A stretch of 64,000 nucleotides of DNA from Pseudodesulfovibrio alkaliphilus (lineage in GTDB: Bacteria > Desulfobacterota > Desulfovibrionia > Desulfovibrionales > Desulfovibrionaceae), in the NCBI RefSeq assembly GCF_009729555.1, contig NZ_WODC01000001.1:186001-250000 (forward strand). Direction: 5' to 3'. Both the position numbers and the translations under genes were made by a program. Position 1 is the stretch's first letter. The number at the start of each line of letters is the position of its first letter. The notes beneath the pieces are model-generated. The model ran no database searches, was not told the DNA's origin, and saw only the letters and a program-made list of their open reading frames with translations. Of this stretch, positions 56,335-57,837 are shown piece after piece.

Positions 56335-56402
56335 CTCTATCCCGCGAAACGCTAGCCGAAAGTCAGCTCCCCGCCGGATTCGTCCACGGTGACGGAGGCG
56401 CC
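56335..56402. repeat. 68-bp direct repeat, copy A (3' end of fic)
   Basis: 67 of 68 bases match copy B at 57770-57837 (G at 56382 versus A at 57817). It contains 16 codons plus stop identical to the ClpB C-terminus ([16 protein letters not shown]) and 17 bp of downstream DNA. Confidence 0.95.
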
Positions 56403-57647
56403 TGTGTGCGTGAGCAAACCTTCTCCGACCCCCAAAAACGCGGCATACACACTATCAATGCTCTTACCCTGCACCGACCTGAAAGGCTTGTACCCCGACT
56501 CGCCCTTGACCAACAGGGATTCCGTGGCCAGACGGTCCAAATCCCTGCGTACCGTGTGCACACTCAATTGATCATAGACCACATTAAACGGAAACTCTTC
56601 CTTCATTGATCGGACGGTCATAACACCACCAGTCTTCTGCATCGCCAGGGCGACATTGAGTTGCCTCTTGTTGATTCTCCGCTTCTTAAAAAGAGATTCC
56701 GTCTTTTCCTTGAAGACAACACGTTCATAATCGCTGACAACCATCTTGAGAACTTCCGCAATACTCGCGCCAAAGCAGGCTAAGAATACATCAAGAAACG
56801 CATTGACTATTTTATCTCCGTCTTTCTGGCATATTCTGTAGGCTTCGTAGTACCGCTTATGAAATTGATTGTAATACCTGGATATCATCATGGGAGCATA
56901 ACGAATCCCGGATTTATGCAACAGGTACGCCTCAAGAAGGCGTGCCGTTCTCCCGTTTCCATCCCAAAAAGGATGAATCAGAGCCAGATGGTAATGGGCG
57001 AGGGCAGCTCGCACGATGGGGTCTACTGCAAGCAGTTCACTGGAGTTGATCCACTGGACGAGCCGCCCCATGAGTGTTTCAATATCCTCTTTCAATTTCG
57101 GCGGCTTGTAGATTCCGCCGGTTTCCCTGCTTCCGACCTTGATATCATGCACACTCGGAAATTGCCGCAACTCTCTATACTTCCCAGGCACATTGTACTT
57201 GTGCGCGATTCCTTCAGTCAAAATTCGATGAAATTCCTTGATCATTGCCTCGGAAATCAACGATCCATCGGGATTATCTAACTGCATCGCATCAAGGGCG
57301 GCATATGCCCGTCTGGCGTTGAGCAACTCCTGCTCTGCCTGACTTCGCTCCGGACTATCCTCTGGGCGGGCCAACACGGATTGTGCCTCGGCCTCACTCA
57401 GGGGGTTGCCCTCAATGACAACCGTCCCCCAAAGCCCACGCCGTTCAAGCTTCTGGATTTCGACAAGTACAGCGTCTCCAGCAGGAAGCATGCAGAGATT
57501 TTCATGTATAGACTTAATGCTGTCCATGACTTGCGCAATAGCATCGTCGTCATATCTGCGGCTGAAATGGAACCGATCCCCCCTGGTCAAGGTAACCACT
57601 TCGACGCGGCTGTCACCATCAAACTTGCTAGCCATTTTGCAACCCAT
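56352..57647 (-). CDS. fic: Fic-domain AMP-transferase-like protein with ClpB-derived tail
   Basis: 431 residues (possibly 427 from a second ATG). Catalytic Fic motif HPFWDGNGRTAR near residue 225. An N-terminal inhibitory motif of the (S/T)xxxE(G/N) type is seen in GTVVIEGNPLS near residue 78, so activity is probably self-restrained. A C-terminal winged-helix-like part (NKRQLNVALAMQ, SVHTVRRDLDRLATE) suggests DNA binding or autoregulation. The last 16 residues are the ClpB tail, from a duplicated segment. AT-rich codons and low-GC upstream DNA (TATACT at 57669-57664) mark it as acquired. Confidence 0.9.
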   Translation of the reverse strand: MGCKMASKFDGDSRVEVVTLTRGDRFHFSRRYDDDAIAQVMDSIKSIHENLCMLPAGDAVLVEIQKLERRGLWGTVVIEGNPLSEAEAQSVLARPEDSPERSQAEQELLNARRAYAALDAMQLDNPDGSLISEAMIKEFHRILTEGIAHKYNVPGKYRELRQFPSVHDIKVGSRETGGIYKPPKLKEDIETLMGRLVQWINSSELLAVDPIVRAALAHYHLALIHPFWDGNGRTARLLEAYLLHKSGIRYAPMMISRYYNQFHKRYYEAYRICQKDGDKIVNAFLDVFLACFGASIAEVLKMVVSDYERVVFKEKTESLFKKRRINKRQLNVALAMQKTGGVMTVRSMKEEFPFNVVYDQLSVHTVRRDLDRLATESLLVKGESGYKPFRSVQGKSIDSVYAAFLGVGEGLLTHTGASVTVDESGGELTFG

Positions 57648-57719
57648 AACTAACTAAATTTAAAGTATAAAACCATAATTCATTTTATCTTTTGCAACGA
57701 CACTTTGTTTCTCTATGCC

Positions 57720-57755
57720 AAAAAAAGGCGGAATAGGGAAGCCCCATTCCGCCTT
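57720..57755 (-). terminator. Intrinsic terminator of clpB
   Basis: Minus-strand stem AAGGCGGAAT/ATTCCGCCTT with inner GC pairs (GGG/CCC), followed by seven T. It separates clpB from fic. Confidence 0.92.
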
Positions 57756-57769
57756 CATATTTCGTTTGT

Positions 57770-57837
57770 CTCTATCCCGCGAAACGCTAGCCGAAAGTCA
57801 GCTCCCCGCCGGATTCATCCACGGTGACGGAGGCGCC
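57770..57837. repeat. 68-bp direct repeat, copy B (3' end of clpB)
   Basis: Partner of copy A at 56335-56402, offset 1435 bp, one mismatch. It spans the last 16 codons and stop of clpB and 17 bp beyond. Confidence 0.95.

What the first reader, a model, noticed from the sequence alone, without database searches (positions are those of the whole stretch)
56335..57837. A fic unit inserted at the clpB 3' end, flanked by 68-bp direct repeats that copy the ClpB tail
Seen directly: 67 of 68 bases are the same at 56335-56402 and 57770-57837. Each copy holds the last 16 codons and stop of clpB plus 17 bp. Between them lie the clpB terminator, an AT-rich promoter and an AT-rich fic gene, with no integrase. 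The layout mimics integration into a gene's 3' end that restores the gene with one copy and leaves the other distal, so the 1.4-kb unit may be a cassette at a clpB hotspot. I know of no described integration site at clpB, but could not search.
Basis: partly seen in the sequence, partly recalled or inferred. Interest (0 to 1): 0.78.

Follow-up and report, generated by a model that had tools for sequence, protein, structure and literature searches.

The report
Foreign fic gene inserted behind clpB
A single foreign gene (fic) sits at the very end of the chaperone gene clpB, placed so that clpB stays whole while its displaced original tail now ends the fic protein; insertions of other cargo between two copies of a clpB end in two other genera suggest a recurrent landing place, with no integrase found.

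Summary
The repeat is real: 67 of 68 bp at 56335-56402 and 57770-57837, no other copy found in the assembly. It marks an insertion: the three nearest genus members have one clpB tail, then terminator and MFS gene, no fic. The native 3'UTR, terminator and MFS gene lie behind the DISTAL copy, so the terminator beside clpB came with the insert. The fic unit is foreign in composition (48.9% GC against 63.1%); its listed relatives are at most 39% identical. Of 113 testable clpB ends in the family, two more, in other genera, have different cargo between two copies of a clpB end: GGDEF (G195), vapBC (G036). The own genome has one similar case at another gene (29/29 bp, methyltransferase). The repeated segment differs each time and no integrase was found, so I favour recombination-driven insertion over an att site. 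Enrichment at clpB is modest (p 0.03-0.04 without the window).

The parts
57787..60384 (-). clpB, 865 aa, intact; its last 16 codons and stop lie in the proximal repeat copy
57770..57837 (-). proximal 68-bp repeat copy: clpB last 16 codons, stop, 17 bp; carries the derived base (GAT)
56403..57769 (-). inserted unique segment, 1367 bp, 48.9% GC
57720..57755 (-). terminator-like hairpin that came with the insert (not clpB's native one); not flagged by the consensus scan
57648..57719 (-). AT-rich stretch upstream of fic, presumed promoter region (no consensus promoter found)
56352..57647 (-). fic ORF, 431 aa; Fic domain; final 16 aa and stop supplied by the displaced ClpB tail
56335..56402 (-). 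distal 68-bp repeat copy: the native clpB tail, stop and start of the native 3'UTR, now the end of fic
56294..56323 (-). native clpB terminator hairpin, now behind fic
55113..56300 (-). MFS transporter gene, the native neighbour of clpB in the three nearest relatives

Best explanation
SHOWN: one foreign gene was inserted at the 3' end of clpB after the split from the nearest sequenced relative; the locus now has two copies of 68 bp of clpB end; the copy beside clpB completes clpB, the native copy sits distal and gives fic its last 16 codons, stop and terminator. INFERRED: it entered by recombination on the clpB end (a single crossover of a small circle carrying that end, or homology-facilitated illegitimate recombination: homologous joining in clpB on one side, non-homologous joining just upstream of the native tail on the other), without a dedicated integrase; insertions there are tolerated because the duplication leaves clpB intact. 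INFERRED function: an AMP-transferase of the autoinhibited (class II) kind, a defence- or toxin-like cargo; the ClpB tail on it is a passive appendage.
For: Empty site with one tail in G011, G001 and G029; native UTR, terminator and MFS gene behind the distal copy; distal base ancestral. Copies 98.5% identical while clpB is about 92% identical to G011 with no step near the end. The 17 non-coding bp of the repeat differ from all three relatives, as expected if both copies come from this lineage. GC 48.9% against 63.1%. No closer Fic than 39% identity. Same anatomy, unrelated sequence, at another gene of this genome (29/29 bp) and, with other repeat segments and other cargo, at clpB in G195 and G036. 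No integrase matched in 116 flanks or the window (limited queries); the 6 PF00589 matches of the own genome are on other contigs.
Against: No donor with clpB tail + fic is known, so neither homology on the incoming DNA nor microhomology at the joints could be seen. No mosaic step in clpB, which homologous replacement from a diverged donor would give. The G036 insert is not AT-rich (65.7% GC) and has no close empty relative; the G195 copy is old (82-83%). Seven of nine clpB ends with cargo behind them that I aligned have no tail copy.
Confidence: 0.45

Rival explanations
1. Site-specific integration by a recombinase that is lost or acts from elsewhere: the unit is a tiny decayed integrative element (CIME-like), the 68 bp are attL/attR, and the 1435-bp circle (fic, ClpB tail, stop, terminator) would be its mobile form.
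For: Direct repeats holding the end of a housekeeping gene, with the gene restored, are the usual outcome of such integration (PMC5704250, passages; repeats of 8-60 bp are given there). Joined end to end the unit would be a self-contained gene with its own hairpin. clpB ends are hit in three genera.
Against: Different repeated segment in each of the three clpB cases; a fourth case at an unrelated gene with an unrelated 29-bp repeat; the 17 non-coding bp are not conserved in relatives; no integrase found near by.
Confidence: 0.25
2. A break-repair event (staggered break or template switching) captured a foreign fragment and copied 68 bp of the break site twice, as a long target duplication with no homology on the incoming DNA.
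For: Explains variable repeat lengths (29, 68, 73 and 62-84 bp) and lack of a core. Indels bounded by direct repeats are described in Haloquadratum, there mostly read as deletions (PMC3119063, passages).
Against: Ku is absent from the genome, so Ku-type end joining is unlikely; clpB ends recur more than other gene ends, which random breaks do not predict.
Confidence: 0.2
3. The fic arrangement is ancestral and relatives lost it by deletion between the repeats.
For: Such deletion would restore an exact single-copy site (repeat-mediated deletion, PMC3119063 passages).
Against: No second tail in any of 35 other genus members; copies are 98.5% identical, younger than the split from G011; composition foreign.
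Confidence: 0.03
4. Assembly artefact.
For: Draft assembly of 29 contigs.
Against: The locus lies well inside an 810-kb contig; the copies differ at one base; the distal copy and its flank are colinear with relatives.
Confidence: 0.03

Closest known systems
CIMEs / IMEs integrated at 3' ends of housekeeping genes (PMC5704250, passages)
   Same: cargo between direct repeats that hold the end of a core gene; gene restored; no integration or transfer genes in the unit
   Different: 1.4 kb with one gene; repeated segment not constant at clpB; no related integrase element found; cargo reads into the displaced gene tail
Homology-facilitated illegitimate recombination with orphaned 3' ends (V. cholerae T6SS, PMC5361080, passages)
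   Same: incoming DNA anchored by homology on one side leaves the old 3' part of the gene behind downstream
   Different: here only a short tail is left behind, clpB product unchanged, donor unknown
P. syringae ICE site att-1 'proximal to clpB' (PMC10945833, one passage)
   Same: integration close to clpB with direct repeats (52 bp)
   Different: the target there is a tRNA-Lys gene, not clpB
SoFic-type Fic AMP-transferases (PADLOC SoFic, E 3e-45)
   Same: Fic core with HPFxDGNGR and the E-containing inhibitory motif; C-terminal winged-helix-like part (motif names recalled)
   Different: 60.3 bits against the 550-bit cut-off of the NCBIfam SoFic equivalog; C-terminus ends in a ClpB tail

Membership tests
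CIME (decayed integrative element) | flanked by direct repeats (attL/attR) holding the target gene end | tested here: met
   67/68 bp repeat with clpB tail
CIME (decayed integrative element) | no integration or transfer genes inside | tested here: met
   only fic between the copies; no integrase match in the window (limited queries)
CIME (decayed integrative element) | shares its att core with an integrase-bearing element | tested here: inconclusive
   no integrase match in 116 clpB flanks; repeat segments differ between genera; viral contigs hold no exact copy of 28 bp of the repeat; conspecific genomes not available
Transposon with target-site duplication | transposase and terminal inverted repeats | tested here: not met
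   single ORF is fic; of the 8 inverted pairs of 20 nt or more found in 53000-61000 none joins the two ends of the insert; short terminal inverted repeats under 20 nt were not searched
Fic protein family (PF02661) | score above Pfam gathering cut-off | tested here: met
   68.6 bits, cut-off 24
Fic protein family (PF02661) | active-site motif HPFx(D/E)GN(G/K)R | tested here: met
   HPFWDGNGR, H225 to R233, invariant apart from W in 32 aligned sequences; motif rule recalled
SoFic equivalog (NF046030) | score above curated cut-off 550 | tested here: not met
   60.3 bits

The most novel reading that the evidence does not exclude
The 3' end of clpB is a recurrent docking site, across genera, for lone defence- or toxin-antitoxin-like genes that insert without any integrase and duplicate roughly 60-85 bp of the clpB end by an undescribed route; the same route works at other gene ends (AMP-binding enzyme/methyltransferase in this genome), and cargo can take the displaced host tail as its own C-terminus.
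Probability: 0.25. Interest if true: 0.72.

Novelty: new variant of a known kind. Interest (0 to 1): 0.52.

Why it matters
Single accessory genes appear behind core genes with no visible vehicle. Here the scar is fresh enough to read, so it gives a handle on how lone genes enter genomes without integrases, and on how a fused protein tail can arise by accident (Fic ending in the ClpB tail). If the clpB end is a general safe landing place, a survey of clpB ends would list single-gene defence and toxin-antitoxin cargo directly.

Tried and rejected
Set aside after inspection: C4:186921/187865 (two tandem ORFs that look by eye like cytosine methyltransferase paralogues); C1:637449 and the L197, L226 and L227 hits (dispersed intergenic repeats); the 38/60 match of L221 (inside an open frame resembling the neighbouring aminopeptidase-like gene); C5:58988, L254 and L338 (intergenic or tandem repeats).

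Not taken as support: G210, where a fic-like ORF with a degenerate motif lies behind clpB but an opposite-strand ORF intervenes and there is no tail copy. Fic homologues as a class being bracketed by direct repeats: 8 of 110 against 11 of 727 other ORFs (p 0.0015; 7 of 110 by the script, L089 added by hand), but 4 of 106 when loci with dispersed or hairpin repeats are left out (p 0.11), so no claim.

My first scan for a second tail used only the last 48 nt before the stop plus 12 after it and missed G195; two searches found G195, searches found G036. Seven of nine clpB ends with cargo behind them that I aligned had no tail copy. Plasmid (81 records, all under 60% identity), phage (12 records, all under 60%) and viral (2 weak loci) searches with Fic gave no donor. 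Paper searches: ('downstream of clpB' + insertion) held 0 papers. Of all papers only passages of four were read; the rest were seen as listings.

Full report
OBSERVATION. It is the only direct repeat family of 34 bp or more within 12 kb found in the window, and the assembly gave no further copy. In the 810-kb contig only 11 direct repeats of 20 bp or more (93% identity) lie 0.5-6 kb apart, against 2 inverted ones; by eye most are coding motifs. The repeat is not chance.

WHAT IS THERE. clpB (60384-57787, minus strand) ends in the proximal copy. The insert proper is 1367 bp at 48.9% GC in a 63.1% window: a terminator-like hairpin (-27.3 kcal/mol; not flagged by the consensus scan), an AT-rich stretch without a consensus promoter, and fic. 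The fic ORF has no stop of its own: it enters the distal copy in the ClpB frame (one chance in three), so its last 16 residues and its stop are those of ClpB. GC3 is 0.57 in residues 1-390, 0.60 in 391-415 and 0.875 in the 16-residue tail (clpB 0.857). Most homologues end near query residue 385-400, some up to about 30 residues later; none of 31 aligned homologues has the ClpB-like end. The predicted structure (mean pLDDT 85) has residues 406-431 below 50. The ClpB tail therefore looks like a passive appendage on a complete Fic protein (inference).

WHICH COPY IS NATIVE. In the three genus members nearest by the last 199 aa of ClpB (G011 95%, G001 91%, G029 87%) clpB is followed by a short 3'UTR, a GCACCCTGTC-type hairpin and an MFS gene, with one tail and no insert. 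In the window this native series follows the DISTAL copy. At the one difference the distal copy has GAC, as in all three relatives; the proximal copy has GAT. The 17 non-coding bp of the repeat differ from all three relatives, so both copies derive from this lineage. clpB is about 92% identical to G011 over its last 2 kb with no step, against 98.5% between the copies (1 of 68): the event is probably younger than that split. None of the 35 other genus members has a convincing second tail.

THE CARGO. Pfam Fic 68.6 bits, cut-off 24; PADLOC SoFic E 3e-45; NCBIfam SoFic 60.3 bits against a cut-off of 550, so it is Fic but not a SoFic equivalog. HPFWDGNGR and TVVIEGN are present at conserved columns, which by recalled motif rules means an active enzyme of the autoinhibited class II kind. 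The source is unknown. Best identities: 35% in the genus (11 of 36 genomes, own included, match at 1e-10), 39% in the family (26 of 288, own included, at 1e-20; the class search listed none closer, 22 of 348 at 1e-40), and 36-37% among the best 80 of 320 relatives in genome contigs (the 37% row covers residues 3-258 only).

IS CLPB A HOTSPOT? I examined 116 clpB 3' flanks: the window, the 35 others of the genus, and 80 of the family, picked for contig length and spread from the listed (capped) rows (262 of 288 genomes matched), G210 being picked because one search showed a fic-like match near by. 113 had at least 2 kb downstream (L047, L054 and L370 dropped). With a seed-and-extend test on -120 to +160 around the stop, 4 of 113 clpB ends have a downstream copy: the window, G195 (L215), G036 (L373), and L197, which by inspection is a dispersed intergenic repeat. 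The blastn version gave 5, adding L226, also dispersed. G195: a ClpB tail copy (84 bp at 83%, protein E 4e-14) lies 1.4 kb behind clpB, with clpB's hairpin and a GGDEF gene (Pfam E 9e-48) between, followed by an AT-rich ORF. G036: 73 bp of clpB 3'UTR plus terminator (91.8%) recur 1.0 kb downstream around an antisense PhdYefM/PIN pair; this insert is 65.7% GC and I had no close empty relative. Controls by the same routine: 1 of 224 other ORF ends in the flanks (L227, a dispersed repeat); 6 hits among 742 own-genome ORF ends: clpB, its antisense mirror, two at one 212-bp-spaced intergenic repeat (L254), a tandem array (L338), and the AMP-binding gene (L255). Counting only gene-bracketing cases after inspection, 3/113 against 1/964 gives p 0.004 and 2/112 against 1/964, window left out, p 0.03. 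With nothing set aside, 4/113 against 5/964 gives p 0.010 and 3/112 against 5/964 p 0.042. Open reading frames were taken mechanically, so some control 'genes' are not genes. AT-rich islands of 650 bp or more start within 300 bp of the clpB stop in 9 of 21 cases over 113 flanks (the window's own fic fell below the threshold and is not among them); intergenic AT-richness may inflate this. Their genes differ: DUF5677, HNH, Mem_trans and unknowns among those scanned. The seven such ends that I aligned show no tail copy.

A SECOND CASE IN THE SAME GENOME. At C1:392630-393585 (L255) a lone Methyltransf_11 gene (45% GC between the repeats) sits behind an AMP-binding enzyme gene between two perfect 29-bp copies of that gene's last 8 coding bases, stop and 18 bp; a terminator-like hairpin and a cyclophilin gene follow the distal copy. 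G001 has no methyltransferase there. G011 has a methyltransferase 76% identical over residues 7-178 at the same place, cut by its contig end, so the site was occupied, or reoccupied, in a sister species. In the 1.60 Mb of own genome scanned I recognised no third case; repeats at C7:195-204 kb enclose AT-rich DNA but lie beside a PF00589 recombinase gene and were not resolved.

MECHANISM. Shared anatomy with different sequence and extent each time, no integrase in the unit or matched in the flanks (six queries from the own genome, two possibly antisense ORFs) and no Ku favour insertion by recombination on the gene end (single crossover of a circle, or homology-facilitated illegitimate recombination as discussed for V. 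cholerae in passages of PMC5361080) over a fixed att core. The integrase/CIME reading stays alive because the anatomy is its usual outcome (PMC5704250 passages) and because an excised 1435-bp circle would be a self-contained gene. Without a donor or conspecific genomes the two cannot be separated here.

NOVELTY. Known kind (cargo between direct repeats at a gene's 3' end), new variant (single gene, no integrase found, cargo borrowing the displaced host tail, clpB itself as target). The clpB-associated site met in the papers is the tRNA-Lys near clpB in P. syringae (one passage, PMC10945833). Searches listed no paper that I recognised as describing insertion into the clpB end, but most were seen as listings only and the library lacks most subscription journals.

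Noticed in passing
G000:C1:392630-393585 (L255:12630-13585): Second gene-tail insertion in the same genome: methyltransferase gene between two perfect 29-bp copies of the end of an AMP-binding enzyme gene; G011 has a related methyltransferase at the same place.
   Followed up: yes
L373 (G036), +1 to +1090 after clpB stop: PhdYefM/PIN toxin-antitoxin pair between two copies of the clpB 3'UTR and terminator.
   Followed up: yes
L215 (G195) 212-1858: GGDEF gene between clpB and an old second copy of the clpB tail.
   Followed up: yes
L194, L201, L205, L212, L213, L217, L359 just behind clpB: Different AT-rich lone genes (DUF5677, HNH, Mem_trans, unknown) start within 300 bp of the clpB stop in several genera, without a detectable tail copy in those aligned (L359 not aligned).
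   Followed up: partly
L089 (G040) 1273-1335 and 2651-2713; L090 (G041): In G040 a fic homologue ends inside a 63-bp repeat (61/63) that also lies upstream of it, while the sister genome G041 has no upstream copy and another C-terminus.
   Followed up: partly
L086 (G050) 1363/2901 and 889/3473; L093 (G240) 1393/2701: Fic homologues flanked by near-identical terminator-like hairpins (30/31, 26/27 bp); L086 also by a 35-bp repeat that looks by eye like a tRNA end.
   Followed up: partly
L165, 2426-2497 and 4637-4708: A fic homologue in a Competibacteraceae MAG lies between a fragment and a full copy of a gene that looks by eye like carbonic anhydrase (67/72 bp).
   Followed up: no
window 54304-54897: ORF of 197 aa in a GC-poor patch two genes from fic, with no match in Pfam, PADLOC, NCBIfam or PHROGs at the thresholds used.
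   Followed up: no
L192 (G210) 2767-4713: A fic-like ORF with degenerate active-site motif lies behind clpB, beyond an opposite-strand ORF, with no repeats.
   Followed up: partly
G000:C7:195216-203773: AT-rich stretch with several direct repeats beside a PF00589 recombinase gene; the outer 21-bp repeat ends in CCA like a tRNA (by eye).
   Followed up: no
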